A stretch of DNA of 49,158 bases, taken from Acidobacteriota bacterium (lineage in GTDB: Bacteria > Acidobacteriota > Terriglobia > Acidiferrales > UBA7541). The stretch lies in assembly GCA_003166795.1 (NCBI GenBank), contig PMUS01000062.1:34973-84130 (forward strand), in the 5' to 3' direction. Below are positions 2,988 to 14,046 of the stretch, piece after piece; position 1 is the first letter of the stretch, and every line of letters begins with the position of its first letter. A program made the translations under genes and the position numbers. The notes under the pieces are model-generated. The model was not told where the DNA came from and did no database searches. It was given only the letters and a program-made list of their open reading frames with translations.

Positions 2988-3101
2988 TGCATGGGCGAAG
3001 TCGCCAGCCTGACGTCGTTACACAGGTCCATGACTCGCGTAGATTGGCTCGCACATGGAGCGAAGCACTCTGGCCCGCATAGCGTATAGCGGAGGACATT
3101 T

Positions 3102-3860
3102 ATGGACTCACCGCAGAAGATCGCCATCGTAACTGGTGCAGGCAGCGGGATCGGCAAGGCTGTCGCCGTTGCCCTCGCCCGGGAGGGCTACTCGGTAGTT
3201 CTTGCCGGCCGGCGCAAGGAAACTTTGGAAGCGACCGCGCTTGAAACGGGGCGGCCCAACACCCCAATGCTCGTGGTACCCACGGACGTGAGCGATCCCA
3301 CCTCTGTGCGTGAGCTTTTCGCGAAAACAAAGGGCGCTTTCGGCCGGCTCGATCTGCTATTCAACAACGCCGGCACGTCCGGCCGCGCCATTCCGCTCGA
3401 GGACTTAACATACGAGCAGTGGAAATCCATCGTGGATACGAACCTCACCGGCACGTTTCTCTGCACGCAGGAAGCATTCATAATCATGAAGAGCCAGGAG
3501 CCGCGCGGCGGGCGCATCATCAACAACGGCTCGATTTCGGCGCACAGTCCCCGGCCGAATTCCGCACCCTATACGGCATCGAAGCACGGAGTCACGGGCC
3601 TTACCAAGGTAACGTCTCTCGACGGCCGAAAGTACGATATCGCCTGCGGCCAGATTGACATCGGAAACGCGTCAACTGGGATGGCGGAGAGAATGAAGAA
3701 GGGCGTTCCGCAGGCGAACGGCACGGTCGCCGTCGAGCCCACGATGGATCCCGCGGATGTTGCGCGGGCCGTGGTGTATATGGCGTCTCTTCCGCTCGAC
3801 GCCAACGTCCAATTCATGACCGTGATGGCGACGAAGATGCCCTTCATCGGTCGCGGTTAA
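3102..3860 (+). CDS. SDR family oxidoreductase
   Basis: A 252-aa classical short-chain dehydrogenase. The NAD(P)-binding TGAGSGIG is at residues 11-18, NNAG at 89-92 region, Asn114, and the catalytic Ser144/Tyr157/Lys161 (YTASK) with the usual Ser-Tyr spacing. Basic residues after beta-2 (GRRKE) suggest NADPH preference, which is an inference. The start is supported by GGAGG seven bases before the ATG. It converges on the selenoprotein gene across a 48-base gap that contains a 6-bp hairpin. Substrate cannot be predicted. Confidence 0.88.
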
Positions 3861-3868
3861 TCGTCAGC

Positions 3869-3883
3869 CCGAAGCAGCTTCGG
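3869..3883. terminator. Hairpin between convergent genes
   Basis: Perfect inverted repeat CCGAAG-CAG-CTTCGG in the 48-base gap between the SDR gene and the convergent UGSC gene. There is no T tract on either side, so termination is inferred from position and symmetry only. Confidence 0.4.
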
Positions 3884-3908
3884 AATCGCCAATTCGTGCT
3901 GAGTCCGA

Positions 3909-5687
3909 CTACATCCACTTGTCGATCGACGCGCTCCTGCCGTGGCGCATGTTCGCCACCTGGAAGAAGGCATTGGCCTGGCCGCCGCAAACGACCAAGT
4001 TAATGTCGGTGGTTCTCGGGAAAAAGGGAATCAGCGTGTCTTCTGGAACCTTGTACCAGGTGGCATAGGGCTCTCGTCCTTGCAGCGCGAGCGGATACAA
4101 GTGAAAGGGGGCTAAGAAGGACTCCCGAAAATCCTTCGCCGTGCGCATCGTATTCTTCCACAACCAGTCAATGAGCTTTTCCTTTGTGTCGTACCCCTGG
4201 TCCACCAGACGCCTCGCCACCAGCGGGTCGCAAATCACCAATGCACCGGACCCGCCGACCATGGATTGAAACATGAAGCTGATCTGTTCGTCGAACATCG
4301 CAGGCTCAGCCCCCGAGCCTCTCGCGCCATGACCCTGACGCATGTCCGGCCCGTCGAAAATACTGACAACGTTTTCCTCGGGTTTGAATCCCAACTGCAC
4401 GTGAAGTGGGGTCCAGGGGCTGCTCTTCTCGTCCTCCGCAATTACGCAGTTGTTGTAGTCCAACTGGTTGCCCTGCCCACCTTGATAGGTGTCGCCCGGT
4501 ATGCCAGCGTTGCTGAGGTTCTTGCCCATCAGCGTCCACGACCGCCCGATCGCGGCATTAGACTGCGCGAAGGGGCTGAGCGCGCCGAGCCCGTAGTTCA
4601 TGTTGAGCTTGTCGCGGATGGGACCGTTGATCACGAGCGCCGTGCCGGATGACGTCGTCGAGCCGAAAAGCCCCAATTGGCCCACGGAGGCCATGGCGAG
4701 GATCACCGGAAAATATTCCGGACGGCATCCCGCCATGACGGCGTTCACAGCTACCTGCCTCACCGTGTACGCCCAGCGCGCAGACGTATAGCCCACACCT
4801 TGCTGCGCCGTCCTGAGCACTTCATCCGGACTGTGGCTCGTTCCCTTAAGCATTGCCTGTACTTTTTCTTCCGTGGGAATGATGATCGGCATGTAATCCG
4901 TCATTCCGTTATTCATGAAGATTTCTTGCAGGTTATCGGCGATTTCCGGACCGTAGGTCGCCGGCCCTGCCGCGAGGGATTGCATCCCGGTCTTCAGCTC
5001 GTCCGCCGAAAGCGGCACGGTCAGATCGTCAACGATCTCCTTCATGATCTGTTTCTGGGATACCGGATCGGGATTTATCAGATACGCCGCGAGTTCCTTC
5101 TCTGATTTGCCTCCAACAGGGTGAGGAGTGAATACTTGACGTAAGTGCGGCATGCCTTCTCTTGCTGCGGTGAGGTTCGCCAATTCCGTGTAGGCCTTGG
5201 TGCACATCGGGATTGCAGGGACGCCCATCTTTTCCATCGTTACGCAGTGACTCACGGTCGCTGGGGCACAGCCTCCTCAATGGCCAATGGCCATGACGGT
5301 GGCGTAAGCGTTTGCCTTGATTTCCGCCCACAGCTTTGGGTCAGCCTCGGCATACACTCCGGCCTTCGTTCGGAAGACGGTCTTGACGGTGGGCATGTTC
5401 TGTTGAAACCAAGCCTGCATATTTTTCAGGAGCGTCGCGCTTCCATCAAAACTGGTGGCGTCAACCACGTAGATGGTTTTCCCGTCGAGGGAGCTGGCGC
5501 GAGGAGCCATAGCGAAGAGAGATACGGCCGGCGGAGTGCCTTTGGGACTGACCGCGAGGATTTTAGGTTCACTTCCCGCGGCGCTCTGCGCGCCCTTTTT
5601 CTTTTGCTCCGCGTCCGCCTGGGATCCGGCCAGAAGCGCCGGAGACATGCCCAGCAGCGACAATATTTTTCGCCTGTTAACTTTCAT
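3909..5687 (-). CDS. UGSC family selenoprotein with in-frame UGA (Sec137)
   Basis: The reading frame from ATG 5687 (GGGGGTG upstream) reaches TGA at 5279-5277 and then continues open for 455 codons in the same frame to 3909, giving 592 aa with the TGA read as selenocysteine. The residues around it are A-I-G-H-U-G-G-C, matching the U-G-S-C redox motif that names the UGSC family (known to NCBI and Pfam as a (seleno)protein family). The N-terminus has a twin-arginine-like NRRKILSLLG signal, so the protein is probably exported. The C-terminal half is a long conserved domain of unknown role. It is the last gene after cytochrome c, PQQ dehydrogenase and a lipoprotein on the same strand. Function is unproven; a thiol/selenol redox role is inferred from U-x-x-C. 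The alternative, a nonsense pseudogene, is less likely because the frame is otherwise intact. Confidence 0.85.
5245..5263 (-). promoter_or_regulatory. SECIS-like hairpin downstream of the recoded UGA
   Basis: On the coding strand CAGCGAC-CGTGA-GTCACTG folds as 3 bp, one C/A mismatch and 3 bp, with a five-base loop CGUGA that begins 20 bases after the UGA. A bacterial SECIS is expected just after the UGA (loop about 16-37 bases away) with a G among the first two loop bases, and this fits. The stem is short and imperfect, so this is a candidate from manual folding only. Confidence 0.5.
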
Positions 5688-5756
5688 GGATGAAACACCC
5701 CCGTATGTTTTGCCGAGCCTCTGCGACGTGGAGCGCACACAACTGGAACTGCGCAA

Positions 5757-6242
5757 TCATTTTACGTCTAAAGGCGCTGCAGGGTTCATCACGTCCACAA
5801 CGCACTTCCAGGAACCGTCAGGCTGCTTTTTCCAAATCGCCACTCCTCTGCTCTCCTCCGTCACGGACTTACCATCGGGACCATTTAAGGACATACGGTC
5901 GGTACCGGTGGAGTAAGCCAAATCGCCCGACTGGGCAACTTCCACTTTGTCAGTCTGCCAGGTGATCGAGAAACCCGGCGTAGCAAACGCGTCGGAGACG
6001 TATTTCCGAATCGCGTCCTTACCCACTACCGCTGGTATGCCCGGAGCGAGGATAGTGGCATCATCCGCCCAGAATGGGAGTATGCGATTCGGGTCGTGCG
6101 CACCCGCTGCGGCGAGCCAGTCAGCATCAGTCTTCCGAATAGCCGCTTCCTCAGCGGAGAGGTCCACTCTGCGATTTGCGCCGCATCCGGCGATTGTAAC
6201 CATAACAAGCGCTACGGTCGCGAAAAGCCCAAAGTTAGTCAT
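5757..6242 (-). CDS. SnoaL/DUF4440-like lipoprotein
   Basis: A 161-aa protein with a lipoprotein signal ending in TIAGC (lipid-modified Cys20), followed by a single NTF2/SnoaL-like fold of the DUF4440 type (EAAIRKTDADWLAA, then FWADDATILAPG and IWKKQPDGSWKCVVD). Such domains bind small ligands or act as isomerase-like or scaffolding domains; no catalytic role can be assigned. It lies between PQQ dehydrogenase (56 bases upstream) and the UGSC selenoprotein (69 bases downstream), so co-transcription and a periplasmic location are likely. Confidence 0.85.
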   Translation of the reverse strand: MTNFGLFATVALVMVTIAGCGANRRVDLSAEEAAIRKTDADWLAAAGAHDPNRILPFWADDATILAPGIPAVVGKDAIRKYVSDAFATPGFSITWQTDKVEVAQSGDLAYSTGTDRMSLNGPDGKSVTEESRGVAIWKKQPDGSWKCVVDVMNPAAPLDVK

Positions 6243-6298
6243 GGCTGAACCTTCCGGAATTGGGCTTTGGCAATTTGCCTCGCATCATCGAATCCAGA

Positions 6299-7906
6299 TT
6301 ACGGCAAATTGAAAGCGACAAAGCAGTTGCCAGAAGCTCCGATCAAGTATTGCTTGCCATCCACTTCATATGTAATCAAATTGGATTCAGAATTGGCGCC
6401 GCCTACAGTGAATTCCCACAACAGCTTTCCGCTCGCGGCGTCGAGCGCGAAGAAATTGCCTTCGTTACTGGTCGCGAAGACAAGACCGCCGGCGGTCGCA
6501 AGCGTGCTGGCCTCCACAGGGGCAAGCATCCGATATTCCCACTTCAACTTGCCGGTCATCACTTCGAGCGCGCGAATTGCTCCGTAGGAGTCATCTCCAG
6601 ACATCGCGTTTCGTCCGCCGCCACCGAAGCCGGGGAAGTCTACCTTGGGCAGGCCTGCCACCGTGTATGCGCCCACTTCACGAGCGGACACATAGAACAG
6701 TTTTGTCTGCGGACTGTAGGACGGGCTGTTCCAGTTCGTCCCGCCGTGGCCATCGGGATAGACCAAACTCCCTTCCGGAGTTGGCTCGATGTTGGGCAGC
6801 AAAATCGGCCGCCCTTTCTCGTCGAGGCCTTTGGCCCAGGTTTCCTTCACGAAGGGGACGCCGGCTACGAACTCGCCCGTCACGCGATTCAGAACGTAAT
6901 AAAATCCGTTGCGGTTCGCCAGCGCCAAATACTTTCCCGGTTTGCCGTTTACCGTGTCGTCGAACAACACGGGGACCTGGATTGCATCCCAGTCATGCGT
7001 ATCATGAGGCGTGAACTGGAAATACCATTTCACTTTTCCTGCATCGGGATCGATGGCGAGGACTGAGTTCGAGTACAGGTTGTCGCCGTCCCTATTATGG
7101 CCGTTGTAATCGGGAGCGGGATTTCCGGTAGTCCAATACAGCAGGTTCAGCTCCGGATCATAGGATCCGGTGCCCCATGTGCCTCCGCCGCCGGTGCCAG
7201 CCATGTCTTTTCCCCAGGTTTCCGAACCGGGCTCGCCCGGACTCGGAATGGTCCACACACGCCAGAGGCGCTTGCCGGTTTTCGCGTCGTAGGCGTCAAG
7301 GAAACCCCGAATCCCTACGTCGCCTCCGGAAACTCCGACAATGATTTTCCCGTCGAGCACTCGAGGCGCCCCGGTCATTGCGTAGCCCTGGCTATTCTCG
7401 TCAACGTGGACAGTCCATTTCACCGCGCCTGTGGTGGCGTCAAGCGCGACGAGATGCGCATCGAGCGTTTCCACGTAAACGGTGTTATTGAAAACTGCCA
7501 CTCCGCGATTCGAACGATGCACTCCGACCGTCAATATTTTTTCGGGAAGGTGAGCGGACCATGTCCAGATTTTCGTGCCCAGGCGCGCGTCGAGAGCAGT
7601 TACGGTACTAAGCGGCTCGGTGACGTACATAATCCCGCCGACGACGACGGGAGATGATTCGAACGGCTGAAGAGGGCGGTTGGGCTGGTACATCCATGCC
7701 GGTTTGAGGCTATGAACATTCACCCGGTTAATCTGCGTAAGCCTTGAAAAGCGCTGCGACGAATAATCTCCGCCGTACATGAGCCAGTCTTGAGGCGTGC
7801 TATCGGCGTGCAGCAGCTGTTCGTAGGTCACATCCTGCGCGAGCAAGCGCGCTGGAGCCGACGAAAGCGCAAAAACAATCACAAGCGCATACAGGAAGCT
7901 TTTCAT
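6299..7906 (-). CDS. PQQ-dependent dehydrogenase, lanthanide-type motif
   Basis: A quinoprotein alcohol or aldehyde dehydrogenase of 535 aa with a signal peptide (about 1-23) and repeated propeller W motifs. There is no fused haem domain; electrons would pass to the cytochrome c encoded directly upstream. Family positions seen: GGDVGIRG (Asp196 where MxaF has a metal-binding Glu), GNP with Asn262, and HDTHDWDA where Asp305 matches the catalytic Asp. Asp307, two residues later, is the extra acidic ligand typical of lanthanide-dependent XoxF/PedH-type enzymes. The vicinal disulfide Cys pair of methanol dehydrogenase is absent. The start codon overlaps the cytochrome stop as ATGA (7903-7906), so translation is coupled. 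Substrate is unknown. Confidence 0.9.
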   Translation of the reverse strand: MKSFLYALVIVFALSSAPARLLAQDVTYEQLLHADSTPQDWLMYGGDYSSQRFSRLTQINRVNVHSLKPAWMYQPNRPLQPFESSPVVVGGIMYVTEPLSTVTALDARLGTKIWTWSAHLPEKILTVGVHRSNRGVAVFNNTVYVETLDAHLVALDATTGAVKWTVHVDENSQGYAMTGAPRVLDGKIIVGVSGGDVGIRGFLDAYDAKTGKRLWRVWTIPSPGEPGSETWGKDMAGTGGGGTWGTGSYDPELNLLYWTTGNPAPDYNGHNRDGDNLYSNSVLAIDPDAGKVKWYFQFTPHDTHDWDAIQVPVLFDDTVNGKPGKYLALANRNGFYYVLNRVTGEFVAGVPFVKETWAKGLDEKGRPILLPNIEPTPEGSLVYPDGHGGTNWNSPSYSPQTKLFYVSAREVGAYTVAGLPKVDFPGFGGGGRNAMSGDDSYGAIRALEVMTGKLKWEYRMLAPVEASTLATAGGLVFATSNEGNFFALDAASGKLLWEFTVGGANSESNLITYEVDGKQYLIGASGNCFVAFNLP

Positions 7907-8757
7907 TGCGCGCTCTTCAAAGTCATAAGATAGGCCACCAGGTCATCCTGCTGCGCCGCGGACAATGTGTCCTTGAAGCTCGGCATGAAACTCTTTCCGG
8001 GTTCCTTTTCCAACGATCGCAGGTCAGGCTTCCAGAGTCCGTGAAATTTTCCACCGGCGTCCTTCAGGACAATCGTGAACGAGTCTTCACCGACGCGCAT
8101 TCCCTCAACGACGCGTCCGTTCTTTTCAATAGCGCGGTACATCAGATATTGCGCCCATCTGCTGCCGAAGGCGCCGCCGTCTCCGACCTGGGGCAAATTC
8201 GCGCCGGGATCCTGCAATCGTGCTTTCAAGCTCGTGGCGCCCCGCATGGCGCCGACGCGGGTCAACTCGGGTCCAATGCTGCCGCCCTGGCCGGCGATCA
8301 TATGGCAAGCCGAGCAGCCGCTGAAATTATAGAGAGCTTCGCCCTTCTTGGGATCGCCTGTTGCCGGGCCGGAGGTTGTTGCGCTGTCCAGCGTTCGTAA
8401 GTAAGCCACGATGTTTGCGGCTTGTTTGTCGGAGAGGGTGGAGGATCCCGGCATTGCGGTGCCCGGGATTCCTCTCCGGACGATGCCTTGCACCGTTGTA
8501 TCGCCCAAGCTGGCCGGAACTCCGTGAAGATTGGGACCGTCTCCGCCGCCAGCATCCGCTCCGTGACACGGAGCGCAGTTCTGCGCAAATAGATGCTTGC
8601 CCTGTTCAGGATCGGCAGGAGTGGCCGGCGAGGTCGGGGATTGCTGATCGGCGGGAGATTCCTGGCCCGCTGCCTGAGAAACGTGAAACGCATTCGCAGT
8701 CAGAGTCCACGCCATGAAAACCAAAGCGACACGCCTGAGACACCTGACTGAATTCAC
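7903..8757 (-). CDS. Di-haem c-type cytochrome, partner of PQQ dehydrogenase
   Basis: A 284-aa exported protein with a signal peptide (about 1-30), a Pro/Ser/Thr/Ala linker, and two cytochrome c modules with haem motifs CAPCH (61-65) and CSACH (148-152). Candidate axial methionines are in TAMPGSS (Met102) and KSFMPSF near the C-terminus. It is the first gene of the minus-strand unit and overlaps the dehydrogenase start by four bases, which fits a dedicated electron acceptor that passes electrons to the respiratory chain. Confidence 0.92.
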   Translation of the reverse strand: MNSVRCLRRVALVFMAWTLTANAFHVSQAAGQESPADQQSPTSPATPADPEQGKHLFAQNCAPCHGADAGGGDGPNLHGVPASLGDTTVQGIVRRGIPGTAMPGSSTLSDKQAANIVAYLRTLDSATTSGPATGDPKKGEALYNFSGCSACHMIAGQGGSIGPELTRVGAMRGATSLKARLQDPGANLPQVGDGGAFGSRWAQYLMYRAIEKNGRVVEGMRVGEDSFTIVLKDAGGKFHGLWKPDLRSLEKEPGKSFMPSFKDTLSAAQQDDLVAYLMTLKSAQ

Positions 8758-8905
8758 GCAACCCCCTCATCGCCCTTCGCCTGTCCCTCGCCAAAATTCT
8801 CGCGAGCGCCTGGTCCGCCCAGCTCACAAACCGTCACCCTACCGAATGCTTCAGCGAGGCTGGGATGCTGGAGTGCCCCAGGCGCATGGCTGATTCCTCG
8901 ACGGT

Positions 8906-10375
8906 TCAGATGGGATAGTGGGAGGGCGTGCGGCGAATGGTGATCCAGCGCAGCTCGGTGAACTCCTGCAGACCCGCGTGGCCGCCGAACCTGCCATAGC
9001 CGCTGTCCTTCATCCCCCCGAAGGGCATTTGAGGCTCGTCATGCACCGTGGCGCCATTGATGTGGCAGATTCCGAATTCGAGTTTCTCGGCAATCCGGAG
9101 AGCATTGTTCACATCGCGGGTGAAAACGGCGCTCGAGAGGCCGTAGGGAGTGTCGTTGGCGATGAGGAGAGCGTCCTCGGCATCGTTGGCGATCACGATC
9201 GGCTTCGCCGGGCCGAATGATTCCTCTCCATACATGCGCATCGCGGGCGTGACGCCGTAAACCACGGTCGGCGGATAGCAGGGTCCCTGCGCTTTTCCAC
9301 CGCAGAGAACTTTCGCGCCCTTCGCGACGGCGTCGTCCACCAACTCCTGCACGCGCTTGATGGCGCCCGGATTGATCATGCAGCCAAGCTGCGAATCGGG
9401 GCTGAGCGGATCGCCCACTTTCAGGGCCTGGCCCTTGGCCGCGAGCTTCTTTGCGAATTCCTCGGCGATGGATTTTTCGACGACGATGCGCTCGGTGGAC
9501 ATGCAGATCTGGCCCTGATTCATGAAGGCGCCAAAATTCGCCGCCGAGACTGCCGCATCTATATCCGCGTCCTTCAGAACGATCATCGGCGCTTTGCCAC
9601 CAAGCTCCAGCACCACGCGCTTGAGGTGCCGCCCGGCGCTCTCGGCGATGAGGCGTCCGATTTTGGTCGAACCGGTGAAGCTGATGCGGCGCGTCTTGGG
9701 ATTCGCAATCAACTCATCCACCACTTCGGCGGCATCGGCAGGCGCATTGGTGATGACGTTGACGACGCCCTTGGGGAAGCCGGCTTCTTCAAAGATGGAT
9801 GCAATCATGAGATGCGTGGCTGGACATTCCTCGGAGGCTTTCAGGATCACGGTGTTGCCGTACGCCAGTGGCGCGGCGATTGCGCGAATTCCCAAAATCA
9901 TCGGCGCGTTCCACGGGGCGATGCCTACCACGACGCCGACAGGCTGGCGAATGGCCATCGCTGTGGTGTCGGGCAAGTCAGTGGGAATTACTTCGCCGAC
10001 TGCTGCGTAGGCCTGCGCGGCGGCTTCGCGAAGCGTGCCGACGCTGAAAATACAATTGAACATGCCCCAGCCGAAGGTCTGGCCGGTTTCTTCGGCGGTG
10101 ATCTTCGCGACTTCCTGCATGCGGCGCTCGAGCACGTCGGCGACTTTCAGGAACAAGCCGCGGCGGACGGCCGGCGCGGTGGAACCCCATGTCTGGAAAG
10201 CGGCGTGGGCGGCTTCGATGGCGCGGCGCGCGTCCTCGCGCTTGCCGGAGGCAACGTGGGAAGCTACTTCGCCGTTGTAGGGATTCTTCTTTTGAAAAGT
10301 TGTACCGTCGGCGGCGCCGGTCCATTCGCCGTTGATGAACTGTTTTGCTTCGCGACCTGCGACAGCTTGTGCCAT
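8906..10375 (-). CDS. NAD(P)-dependent aldehyde dehydrogenase
   Basis: Oxidises an aldehyde to the acid in the cytosol. The 489-aa product has PWNAP with Asn156, the LELGG motif with Glu257 and the catalytic Cys291 in NQGQICMS. It most resembles the aromatic branch (vanillin, benzaldehyde and salicylaldehyde dehydrogenases). Lying 115 bases downstream of the Rieske oxygenase, it may act on vanillin-type aldehydes, but the substrate is an inference. The start is set by AGAGGAG six bases before ATG 10375. Confidence 0.92.
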   Translation of the reverse strand: MAQAVAGREAKQFINGEWTGAADGTTFQKKNPYNGEVASHVASGKREDARRAIEAAHAAFQTWGSTAPAVRRGLFLKVADVLERRMQEVAKITAEETGQTFGWGMFNCIFSVGTLREAAAQAYAAVGEVIPTDLPDTTAMAIRQPVGVVVGIAPWNAPMILGIRAIAAPLAYGNTVILKASEECPATHLMIASIFEEAGFPKGVVNVITNAPADAAEVVDELIANPKTRRISFTGSTKIGRLIAESAGRHLKRVVLELGGKAPMIVLKDADIDAAVSAANFGAFMNQGQICMSTERIVVEKSIAEEFAKKLAAKGQALKVGDPLSPDSQLGCMINPGAIKRVQELVDDAVAKGAKVLCGGKAQGPCYPPTVVYGVTPAMRMYGEESFGPAKPIVIANDAEDALLIANDTPYGLSSAVFTRDVNNALRIAEKLEFGICHINGATVHDEPQMPFGGMKDSGYGRFGGHAGLQEFTELRWITIRRTPSHYPI

Positions 10376-10490
10376 GGAAATCTCCTCTTTCTGACAGACT
10401 GTAAGAGCCTATTCGATCGCGTTTGAGAGCGCGAGTTCTTTTACCACATTCGGCGGGCGCGGAGAAGCCGGGCGGCGATTGCGAGAGCGT

Positions 10491-11519
10491 CTAGCGGGCC
10501 GCGGCACTCGCCTGGCGATCCAGCACGTGTTGAATGATTCTCCGGGCGTGCACGCCACCTGCATCGATTTTCAAGTTGCGCAGATCGCGATCCGGGCGCT
10601 GAAGGACGTTCCGCTGCTGCGATTCGAGTATCTGGGTATCCTCCTCAAAAACGGCCGCCTGTCCATCGCGGATGCGAAAGGTGAGGCCGCGATCGTCGGT
10701 CTGAAAATTCCGGACCATCCCCCAGTGATACCAGGTGGAGGTTTCCGTCTCCGGCGTCATGAGGTTTACGACGATGCCCGTGACTCCCTTGGACCGATCG
10801 CCTTCGGCTGCGCCCGTACCCGCCAGTGCGACACCGACATCTATCATGACGTTCGCCGGAAGAGAAAACATGCAGATCTGCCAGCGGTCGCATTTTTGCT
10901 GGGACTTCAAATTGGCGGACCAGAATGGCGGCGGATCTATATTTAACATCCAGCGAGTGACGGTCACGGAGTTCTCATCCGACACGGCTTTAATCGGAGC
11001 TTCGACGATTTCGTGCTGTCCGATGCTGCTCGGGTGGACGTAGGTTTCGTGGGATAGGTCCATCAGGTTGTCCACCAGCAACTGATAGTTGCACTTGATG
11101 TGATAGGTGCTTCCTTCAAAGATCCAGTTCGGGTCGGAGCACCAGTGCAGGTCGGGAATCTTACTTTCGTCGGCCCGCTGCGGATCGCCGATCCAAATCC
11201 AAACGAAGCGATATTTCTCTGCCACCGGATACGTCCCAATCAGCATGTCCTTTCGGACGCCTTCCTGGCCCGGCATCCATACGCATTTGCCGCCTTCGTC
11301 GAATTCAAGTCCGTGATACCTGCAGACCAGATGGTCGCCTTTGAGATATCCCATTGAAAGCGGCAGGAGGCGGTGGGGACAGCAGTCCTCGAAAGCGGAG
11401 AGAGCGCCGTTCGTTTGGCGGTAGAGCACGACCGGCTCGCCACAGACCGTTCGAGCCATGGGAGCGTGCTTGACCTCGAAGTCCCAGGCCACCGCATACC
11501 AGAAATCTCGCAGGAACAT
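10491..11519 (-). CDS. Rieske aromatic oxygenase, VanA-like
   Basis: Terminal oxygenase of the vanillate O-demethylase type: a Rieske [2Fe-2S] cluster passes electrons to a mononuclear iron that hydroxylates a methoxy or ring carbon. The 342-aa product has the Rieske ligands Cys47-x-His49 and Cys66-x2-His69 and the iron motif Asp154-x2-His157-x4-His162. The ATG at 11519 is chosen because AAGGAGG lies six bases upstream; the open frame continues upstream, but that stretch has no domain. No reductase (VanB-like) gene is adjacent, so electrons must come from elsewhere. It is divergent from the CADD gene, with a palindrome in the gap. Confidence 0.88.
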   Translation of the reverse strand: MFLRDFWYAVAWDFEVKHAPMARTVCGEPVVLYRQTNGALSAFEDCCPHRLLPLSMGYLKGDHLVCRYHGLEFDEGGKCVWMPGQEGVRKDMLIGTYPVAEKYRFVWIWIGDPQRADESKIPDLHWCSDPNWIFEGSTYHIKCNYQLLVDNLMDLSHETYVHPSSIGQHEIVEAPIKAVSDENSVTVTRWMLNIDPPPFWSANLKSQQKCDRWQICMFSLPANVMIDVGVALAGTGAAEGDRSKGVTGIVVNLMTPETETSTWYHWGMVRNFQTDDRGLTFRIRDGQAAVFEEDTQILESQQRNVLQRPDRDLRNLKIDAGGVHARRIIQHVLDRQASAAAR

Positions 11520-11641
11520 GGCAGCCTCCTTCGACGCCCTCCGGGCAATGCCCGGGGCGATGGTAATCCGAAGCGGCGGTTCAGGCAATGGACGTGGAAC
11601 GTGTCGACGATTGCGGGAGGGTGTTGGACGAGCTTTGGTGT

Positions 11642-11658
11642 GTTTCATCTTGTGAAAC
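11642..11658. promoter_or_regulatory. Palindromic operator candidate, site A
   Basis: Perfect inverted repeat GTTTCA-TCTTG-TGAAAC in the 258-base gap between the divergent Rieske oxygenase and CADD genes, about 120 bases from each start. Near copies occur upstream of the IclR/MetF pair and of the carboxylase operon, so it may be the binding site of the local IclR regulator. Confidence 0.55.
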
Positions 11659-11777
11659 GTACCGCCGCCCCGGAATGGCACATGGTCCGGCGATCTCTGG
11701 ATTTCCTCGCACATATCGGTTAGGATTTCGAAGTTTTGGATCAGCAACAGCCCTGAAAGGAAACCTGAAAAAAGGCG

Positions 11778-12467
11778 ATGCCTAAGAACAGCGCACGACC
11801 GAAGACTTTGCTTGAATCACTCGACATTCTGATCGAAAAACACCACCTGCTAAAACATCCCTTCTATCAGGCCTGGACCGAAGGGACACTCTCCAAGGAA
11901 TCGCTCCAGCTCTATGCGGGGCAGTATTACCAACATGTGCGCGCGTTTCCCGAGAATCTGCAGCAGCTCGCCGACCGGGCCGAAGGCCCCGTGGCAAAGC
12001 TCATCCAGGAAAACCTGGATGAAGAACTCGATCCGGTTTCTCCGCACCCCATGCTCTGGCGCCAATTCGCTGAATCGCTCGGCGTGAGCGAAGCCACACT
12101 CGCCGACTCGCGCCCGCTTCCGGGCATTGCGGCGCTGCTGGATACGTTCGACGAAGTGACCTCACAGGGCACGATGGCGCAGGCCGTTGCCGTGTTCTAC
12201 GCGTACGAGGCGCAGGTGCCGGAGATCGCAGCGCAGAAAATCTCCGGGCTGCGGCGTTTCTACGACATCACCGAGCCTCGCGCGCTCGCTTATTTCAGCG
12301 TGCACGAGGAAGCCGACGTGCGCCACCGCGCCGCATGGCGCTCCTGGCTGAATAATCAGAACGACGGGGACAACTTCGAAGTGCTCTGCGCGGCCGAGAG
12401 AAGCCTGAAGGCGCTTTGGGGCGCGCTCGACGCCGTGTACCCGCAGTCCTGCGCCGCGAAGAACTAG
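11778..12467 (+). CDS. CADD family protein (haem-oxygenase-like di-metal, p-aminobenzoate/folate)
   Basis: A 229-aa all-helical protein of the CADD family (a PqqC/TenA-like fold annotated as folate-related). Chlamydial CADD is a self-sacrificing enzyme that makes p-aminobenzoate for folate. The metal ligands of that enzyme are all present with an offset of two: Glu83, His90, Glu144, His176, Asp180 and His183 (in HEEADVRH). A lysine at 154 matches the position reported as important in CADD, and Tyr30 is a candidate donor tyrosine; these two assignments are from memory. Its neighbours include a tetrahydrofolate-dependent demethylase, so folate supply is a plausible role. A strong hairpin follows the stop codon. 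Confidence 0.85.
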   Translation: MPKNSARPKTLLESLDILIEKHHLLKHPFYQAWTEGTLSKESLQLYAGQYYQHVRAFPENLQQLADRAEGPVAKLIQENLDEELDPVSPHPMLWRQFAESLGVSEATLADSRPLPGIAALLDTFDEVTSQGTMAQAVAVFYAYEAQVPEIAAQKISGLRRFYDITEPRALAYFSVHEEADVRHRAAWRSWLNNQNDGDNFEVLCAAERSLKALWGALDAVYPQSCAAKN

Positions 12468-12479
12468 GTATCCTGAGGG

Positions 12480-12520
12480 GGCGCGTCCCGTAACACTTGG
12501 GGGTGGGGGGACGCGCCTTT
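12480..12520 (+). terminator. Intrinsic terminator after CADD gene
   Basis: Perfect 10-bp stem GGCGCGTCCC (12480-12489) and GGGACGCGCC (12508-12517), followed by TTT. The T run is short but the stem is strong, and it lies 13 bases after the CADD stop. Confidence 0.65.
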
Positions 12521-12618
12521 CGCGAAGCAGGTTCCCCAGCTTGGACCCAGCGCGTCCGCACGCGTATTGCGCGAGAGCGCGGAAGTCTGTCAGTATCTGG
12601 CCGCGCTTTGGCCGATAA

Positions 12619-14046
<1,428 letters not shown>

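What the first reader, a model, noticed from the sequence alone, without database searches (positions are those of the whole stretch)
5277..5279. In-frame TGA read as selenocysteine in an exported UGSC protein
The minus-strand frame is open for 136 codons, meets one TGA, then stays open for 455 codons in the same frame. The TGA lies in A-I-G-H-U-G-G-C, the active-site position that names the UGSC family. An automated caller would split this into two hypothetical genes or a pseudogene. The leader looks Tat-like, and the gene follows a PQQ dehydrogenase/cytochrome c unit, which is an unusual setting for a selenoprotein and suggests periplasmic redox chemistry.
Basis: partly seen in the sequence, partly recalled or inferred. 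Interest (0 to 1): 0.85.

Follow-up and report, generated by a model that had tools for sequence, protein, structure and literature searches.

The report
Exported selenoprotein fused to unknown domain
A bacterium appears to read one stop-like codon as the rare amino acid selenocysteine in a probably exported enzyme, one of nine such genes in its genome, whose selenium site resembles that of glycine and proline reductases and whose second half matches no named family.

Summary
The TGA at 5277-5279 (-) is real and very probably selenocysteine. Read through, the gene is one 592-residue protein. The genome has a selC-selD-selA-selB cluster and nine UGSC loci with U in the same motif. Over the window and 79 related loci this column is U 62, C 13, L 2, M 1, gap 2. 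Genomes behind Cys-type loci mostly lack SelA (9 of 13); those behind U-type loci rarely do (3 of 33). Synonymous codons are frozen around the UGA, over a conserved hairpin that is weak in the window copy. Residues 48-201 are Pfam UGSC. A 2008 paper reported UGSC fused to an "Unknown_1" domain and guessed a Trx-like fold. Here the UGSC domain aligns with the Sec half of GrdB/PrdB (E 3e-9), not with thioredoxins. The C-terminal domain matched no family or solved fold searched. The leader looks Tat-like, untested. PQQ-dehydrogenase neighbours recur in acidobacterial relatives. Most likely a selenol-dependent catabolic enzyme; substrate unknown.

The parts
3909..5687 (-). Whole gene, 592 residues with U137, stop included
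5277..5279 (-). TGA read as selenocysteine (residue 137)
5610..5687 (-). Twin-arginine-like leader MKVNRRKILSLLGMSPALLAGSQADA (residues 1-26); end point inferred by eye
   Evidence: low pLDDT there; relatives' leaders
5085..5546 (-). UGSC domain (PF24696), residues 48-201, with the U137-x-x-C140 motif
5245..5263 (-). SECIS-like hairpin, CAG.GACC-loop-GGTC.CTG in the clade, beginning at base 17 counted from the T of the TGA; its innermost pair is C.A in the window
3912..4982 (-). C-terminal domain of unknown kind (residues 236-592), probably the 'Unknown_1' of the 2008 paper
5757..6242 (-). SnoaL/DUF4440-like gene directly upstream; its leader looks like a lipoprotein's by eye
6299..7906 (-). 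PQQ-type alcohol dehydrogenase: TIGR03075 at 527 bits, above its cut-off; also TIGR04528 'acido-empty-quinoprotein' at 538 bits, below its cut-off of 650
7903..8757 (-). c-type cytochrome (PF13442, two stretches)

Best explanation
Shown by sequence: the gene is a selenoprotein gene in a genome that carries the genes to make selenocysteine, and one of nine UGSC genes there. Inferred: SelB with a hairpin just after the UGA inserts Sec at residue 137; the folded protein is exported by the Tat route; the N-terminal alpha/beta domain, a relative of the Sec half of GrdB/PrdB, puts the selenol of U137 near the start of a helix with C140 as partner; the selenol attacks a substrate held by the C-terminal domain, probably an organic acid or related compound, and is reset by a thiol or flavin reductant (a Pyr_redox_2 flavoprotein of thioredoxin-reductase size in several leaderless relatives). 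In the exported form the quinoprotein and cytochrome c next door probably belong to the same breakdown pathway rather than reducing the selenol.
For: selC, selD, selA, selB in one cluster on C113. Column U 62, C 13, L 2, M 1, gap 2 of 80. SelA missing in 9 of 13 genomes behind Cys-type loci against 3 of 33 behind U-type loci, Fisher p 1e-4. Two haloarchaeal relatives have Cys. Synonymous identity up to 0.87 beside the UGA against a mean of 0.49 (sd 0.09) over 526 windows, the best 12 windows all there. UGSC domain against extended GrdB/PrdB: 96%, E 3.2e-9, Sec on Sec and Cys on Cys; controls 0.4-0.8%. AlphaFold mean pLDDT 89.5 with U137 between strand 129-135 and helix 140-153. A Pyr_redox_2 flavoprotein within 75 bases of the match in L102, L103, L105, L119, L123, and a NAD(P)/FAD oxidoreductase two genes upstream in Variovorax. 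Neighbours for carboxylate uptake and CoA chemistry.
Against: No protein or 75Se data. The window hairpin is not more stable than shuffles (z +1.06) nor than synonymous versions (z 0); it has one broken pair, the clade shows no covariation and the shuffle control is uninformative. The NCBIfam UGSC model scores 76 bits, below its 125 cut-off. High-potential PQQ/cytochrome c partners would not be expected to reduce a selenenylsulfide (recalled redox chemistry), so the electron route in the periplasm is open. Three relatives have Leu or Met at the column although their genomes keep SelA, so some members seem to work without Sec or Cys there. Four Cys-type genomes also keep SelA. No PF07355 protein in this genome.
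Confidence: 0.6

Rival explanations
1. Sec is inserted, but the protein is a general thiol/selenol oxidoreductase (antioxidant or disulfide handling, Trx-like in role) and not a substrate-specific catabolic enzyme.
For: UxxC motif; the 2008 paper marks UGSC as a thiol-oxidoreductase homologue or Trx-like fold protein; Pyr_redox_2 flavoprotein next to several relatives.
Against: No profile match to six thioredoxin-family sequences (0.8%); predicted beta-alpha-beta-alpha-beta order before the motif; catabolic and transport neighbours; nine paralogues; the C-terminal domain has 17 invariant residues in the 58-row alignment, none of them Cys.
Confidence: 0.25
2. The TGA is a true stop: two proteins, or a decayed gene, or an assembly error.
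For: Table 11 reads it so.
Against: Same codon in the same motif in nine loci of the genome and at the column in 61 of 79 related loci; Cys stands there mainly where SelA is missing; synonymous constraint around it.
Confidence: 0.02
3. The TGA is read as Trp or another residue (reassigned code).
For: None found.
Against: Neither Trp nor Arg at the column in 80 rows; two of the three tandem paralogues in L064 end in TGA as their stop; a tRNA-Sec with anticodon tca is present.
Confidence: 0.01
4. Sec insertion is partial and regulated: with little selenium the 136-residue piece is released, so the UGA also acts as a selenium switch.
For: UGA termination competes with SelB insertion in general (recalled); weak hairpin in this copy.
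Against: Nothing here tests it; the short piece lacks the active-site motif and is an unlikely functional product.
Confidence: 0.1

Closest known systems
UGSC family (seleno)protein, PF24696 / NF041046 (UGSC-containing protein of PMC2398784)
   Same: UxxC motif, domain match at 104 bits over a 25-bit cut-off, Sec or Cys at the column in nearly all aligned relatives
   Different: Twin-arginine-like leader, UGGC instead of UGSC, below the NCBIfam cut-off, nine UGSC loci in one genome
UGSC + Unknown_1 fusion (PMC2398784, Figure S1A; text section read, figure not held)
   Same: A UGSC domain fused to a conserved domain of unknown function
   Different: Whether Unknown_1 is this C-terminal domain could not be checked
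Glycine reductase component B (GrdB) and D-proline reductase PrdB, PF07355
   Same: Sec half: UxxC, following helix, E..GIPTV-like stretch; profile match E 3.2e-9
   Different: Only 93 columns match; no PF07355 hit in the protein or genome; C-terminal domain unrelated to GrdB by profile
Tat-exported formate dehydrogenases FdnG/FdoG (recalled)
   Same: Selenoproteins that leave the cytoplasm by the Tat route
   Different: Molybdopterin enzymes, a different family (recalled, not compared here)

Membership tests
Bacterial selenoprotein gene | tRNA-Sec, SelA, SelB and SelD in the genome | tested here: met
Bacterial selenoprotein gene | Sec/Cys exchange at the column among homologues | tested here: met
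   U 62, C 13, L 2, M 1, gap 2 of 80
Bacterial selenoprotein gene | SECIS hairpin just downstream of the UGA | tested here: inconclusive
   Conserved helix, 95% of cells paired against 21-32% when slid, and codon freeze; but ordinary energy, one broken pair in the window, no covariation; no Rfam hit at gathering scores
Bacterial selenoprotein gene | Selenium shown in the protein | not testable with these tools
   Needs 75Se or mass spectrometry
UGSC family PF24696 | Score above the Pfam cut-off | tested here: met
   104.4 bits against 25
NCBIfam NF041046 UGSC equivalog | Score above 125 bits | tested here: not met
   76.4 bits; so not filed as this equivalog
GrdB/PrdB (PF07355) | Match to the PF07355 model | tested here: not met
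   Not among families found for the protein or its 51 aligned relatives, nor in the genome
GrdB/PrdB superfamily, Sec half | Profile homology through the UxxC motif | tested here: met
   96%, E 3.2e-9; controls 69, 75, 91 negative
Thioredoxin fold | Profile or fold match to thioredoxins | tested here: not met
   0.8%; none among the 50 PDB hits listed of 1476
Tat substrate | RR motif, hydrophobic stretch, export shown | tested here: inconclusive
   RR plus moderately hydrophobic stretch in the window and its clade; no predictor or experiment

The most novel reading that the evidence does not exclude
A periplasmic branch of the GrdB/PrdB selenoprotein superfamily: a Tat-exported selenol enzyme fused to a domain of unknown fold, multiplied to about nine copies in one acidobacterium-like genome, each tuned to a different substrate and coupled to quinoprotein/cytochrome c breakdown of organic compounds.
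Probability: 0.3. Interest if true: 0.75.

Novelty: new variant of a known kind. Interest (0 to 1): 0.52.

Why it matters
[quoted passage not shown] Linking the UGSC domain to GrdB/PrdB and not to thioredoxin suggests a testable chemistry (selenol attack on a bound substrate). Linking it to a C-terminal partner with no named family, to Pyr_redox_2 reductases and to carboxylate pathways narrows the search for the substrate. Gene callers that stop at TGA will split such genes, so genomes like this one may hide a larger selenoproteome.

Tried and rejected
Genuine stop or reassigned codon: rejected. Thioredoxin fold: not supported. PF07355 rows cut at the UGA gave no match to UGSC, because that match ends just before the Sec codon; extending the same loci past it gave the match. 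Of 15 such loci, 12 went into the extended alignment; L165, L172 and L177 were dropped after (no UxxC read by my pattern, or a reading that turned unlike the others after the motif). Fold of the C-terminal domain: Foldseek found nothing at E 1e-3 or better; class I fumarases lead at E 8e-3 with TM about 0.2 and 16 A rmsd, which I do not use. PDB sequence profile: two matches at E 1.2 and 2, taken as chance. Hairpin energy as proof of SECIS: failed for the window itself; the group test is only moderately in favour (67 U genes mean z -1.31, 13 Cys genes 0.14, but 3 Leu/Met genes -1.11; L158, L161 and L162 skipped). Rfam on the window at gathering scores: nothing. Sigma-70 promoters in 3000-10500: none. 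Paper searches: searches returned no paper; some searches gave listings only. Papers seen: PMC2398784 (passages, section 9), PMC13188914 (passages), PMC9312934 (passages).

Full report
OBSERVATION. The minus-strand frame is as described: 136 codons from ATG 5687, TGA at 5277-5279, then 455 codons to TAG 3909-3911. A table-11 caller sees two ORFs. Both pieces match Pfam UGSC separately and better together, 104.4 bits over residues 48-201. The NCBIfam equivalog scores below its cut-off (76.4 against 125).

MACHINERY. The window lies in a 3.9-Mb genome of 115 contigs, 92.9% complete. On contig C113 there is a tRNA-Sec with anticodon tca (67 bits; ARAGORN agrees), followed on the same strand by selD (372 bits), selA (476 bits summed) and selB (329 bits summed) (frames). 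A second SelA-like gene on C104 lies in two frames.

PARALOGUES. Pfam UGSC finds nine loci in the genome, each with one TGA inside; I read the motif at all nine, and each has U in G[HD]U[GS]xC. Three stand in tandem on C113. Six further copies align over their whole length with the window protein at 27-62% identity. One copy on C47 ends early and one on C109 runs into undetermined bases.

HOMOLOGUES. In a MAFFT alignment of the window and the 79 loci, the column of residue 137 is U 62 (window included), C 13, L 2, M 1, gap 2; the two gap rows are C-terminal-domain matches without a UGSC part. Cys at +3 is kept in 73 of 78. In a phylum sample 40 of 396 genomes matched; 60 of 60 rows spanning residue 137 have an in-frame TGA by my count. 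In several of these genomes the two domains lie in separate frames close together (for example G077, G131, G009, G259). I asked for SelA in the genomes behind 50 of the loci (all 13 Cys, all 3 Leu/Met, 34 of the 61 U loci); 49 were held. SelA was above cut-off in 30 of 33 U, 4 of 13 Cys and 3 of 3 Leu/Met genomes (Fisher test of U against Cys p 1e-4). These genomes are not independent and are mostly metagenome bins. Two haloarchaeal UGSC proteins have Cys.

SECIS. After the UGA the window and its clade share CAG.GACC-GTN-GGTC.CTG. It is almost invariant, so there is no covariation and the shuffle control says nothing; 95% of cells pair against 21-32% when the partners are slid. Its energy is unremarkable in the window. 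The stronger evidence is codon choice: across 13 genes (each at least 47% identical to the window protein), identical-codon use at shared residues is 0.49 on average (sd 0.09, 526 windows of nine codons), and the twelve highest windows (0.77-0.87) all begin at codons -2 to +9 of the UGA. In ten Cys-type genes (mean 0.59, sd 0.08) the highest windows are scattered along the gene; one of the twelve best begins at +12, none closer. Two Cys-type genes of the same clade, L087 and L091, are no longer predicted to form the helix.

FOLD AND KINSHIP. AlphaFold2 on 52 aligned sequences gives mean pLDDT 89.5; the UGSC domain has strands 71-76, 102-107, 129-135 and 158-163 alternating with helices, with U137 between the third of these and the next helix. 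No hit in the PDB is significant; no thioredoxin is among the 50 listed. A profile of 35 UGSC domains (chosen from 74 available rows) aligns with 12 GrdB/PrdB-type sequences extended past their own Sec codon at 96% probability, E 3.2e-9, Sec on Sec. Controls: thioredoxins 0.8%, C-terminal domain against GrdB 0.4 and 0.7%; GrdB/PrdB cut at the Sec codon also gave nothing. The E-value is for one pair, and the 93 columns centre on the motif. The 2008 paper suggested a Trx-like fold (section read); in the passages I saw, PrdB and UGSC stand as separate families. Searches brought up no title or passage stating the GrdB link, but I did not read all the listed papers.

C-TERMINAL DOMAIN. Residues 236-592 match no Pfam or NCBIfam family in the window protein; among 52 aligned members only single weak hits appear beside UGSC. 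It folds confidently (pLDDT 88.2) but has no significant PDB match. Highly conserved residues include D264 (80 of 80), R382 (79) and E418 (78); none of its 17 invariant columns is Cys. In Halorientalis the UGSC gene sits between two separate homologues of this domain.

SETTING. Minus-strand order: cytochrome c (7903-8757), PQQ dehydrogenase (6299-7906), SnoaL-like (5757-6242), this gene. The dehydrogenase passes TIGR03075 but also scores 538 bits, below cut-off, with the 'acido-empty-quinoprotein' model, so PQQ binding is not certain; PqqE is present in the genome (509 bits). PQQ-type genes occur in 8 of 85 regions examined (79 loci, five own-genome regions, the window's first 14 kb); six members besides the window's were confirmed by Pfam, and L116 lies over 5 kb away. 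Other relatives have a Pyr_redox_2 flavoprotein (a cluster in 8 regions; the five within 75 bases of the match were confirmed by Pfam; a CxxC motif was not looked for), TctC-type binding proteins (a cluster in 8 regions; two confirmed), or, in named plasmids, CoA transferase, CoA ester lyase or malonyl-CoA genes. By a rough rule 12 of 77 have RR plus a hydrophobic stretch, 9 a hydrophobic stretch only and 56 neither (the rule missed L084, whose leader resembles the window's).

MECHANISM. My odds: Sec insertion about 0.97; U137 acting as nucleophile or redox centre with C140, from the GrdB/PrdB kinship, about 0.7; the C-terminal domain binding an acid or related substrate, from context, about 0.4; export about 0.75 but untested.

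Noticed in passing
L109 5592-7397, L117 6001-7764, L126 6001-7611: Three relatives have Leu or Met instead of Sec/Cys, though their genomes keep SelA. L117 and L126 lie near a glycyl-radical enzyme and a radical-SAM protein.
   Followed up: partly
L070 (G000 contig C104) 636-2001: A second SelA-like gene in the same genome, in two frames on a 5.5-kb contig; may be a decayed copy or contamination.
   Followed up: no
L067 6044-7306 and L066 9156-10004: Two of the nine UGSC paralogues are cut: one by an early stop, one at undetermined bases.
   Followed up: no
L186 3983-6645, L187 2840-5539: Haloarchaeal plasmids carry a three-gene set: hypothetical, Cys-type UGSC, hypothetical, with CoA transferase and TRAP transporter genes near; in L186 both hypotheticals are homologues of the C-terminal domain (not compared for L187).
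   Followed up: partly
L163-L177: GrdB/PrdB-like proteins in 11 of 24 genomes searched, most with an in-frame TGA right after the PF07355 match.
   Followed up: partly
window 8906-13998: Aldehyde dehydrogenase, VanA-like Rieske oxygenase, haem-oxygenase/PQQC-like protein and GcvT-like protein lie upstream; a GcvT-like gene also lies within 1 kb of UGSC genes in L067, L068 and L085: possible O-demethylation theme.
   Followed up: partly
L120: A metagenome bin labelled Klebsiella pneumoniae carries a Sec-type UGSC gene between two TctC-type genes; the label is probably wrong.
   Followed up: no
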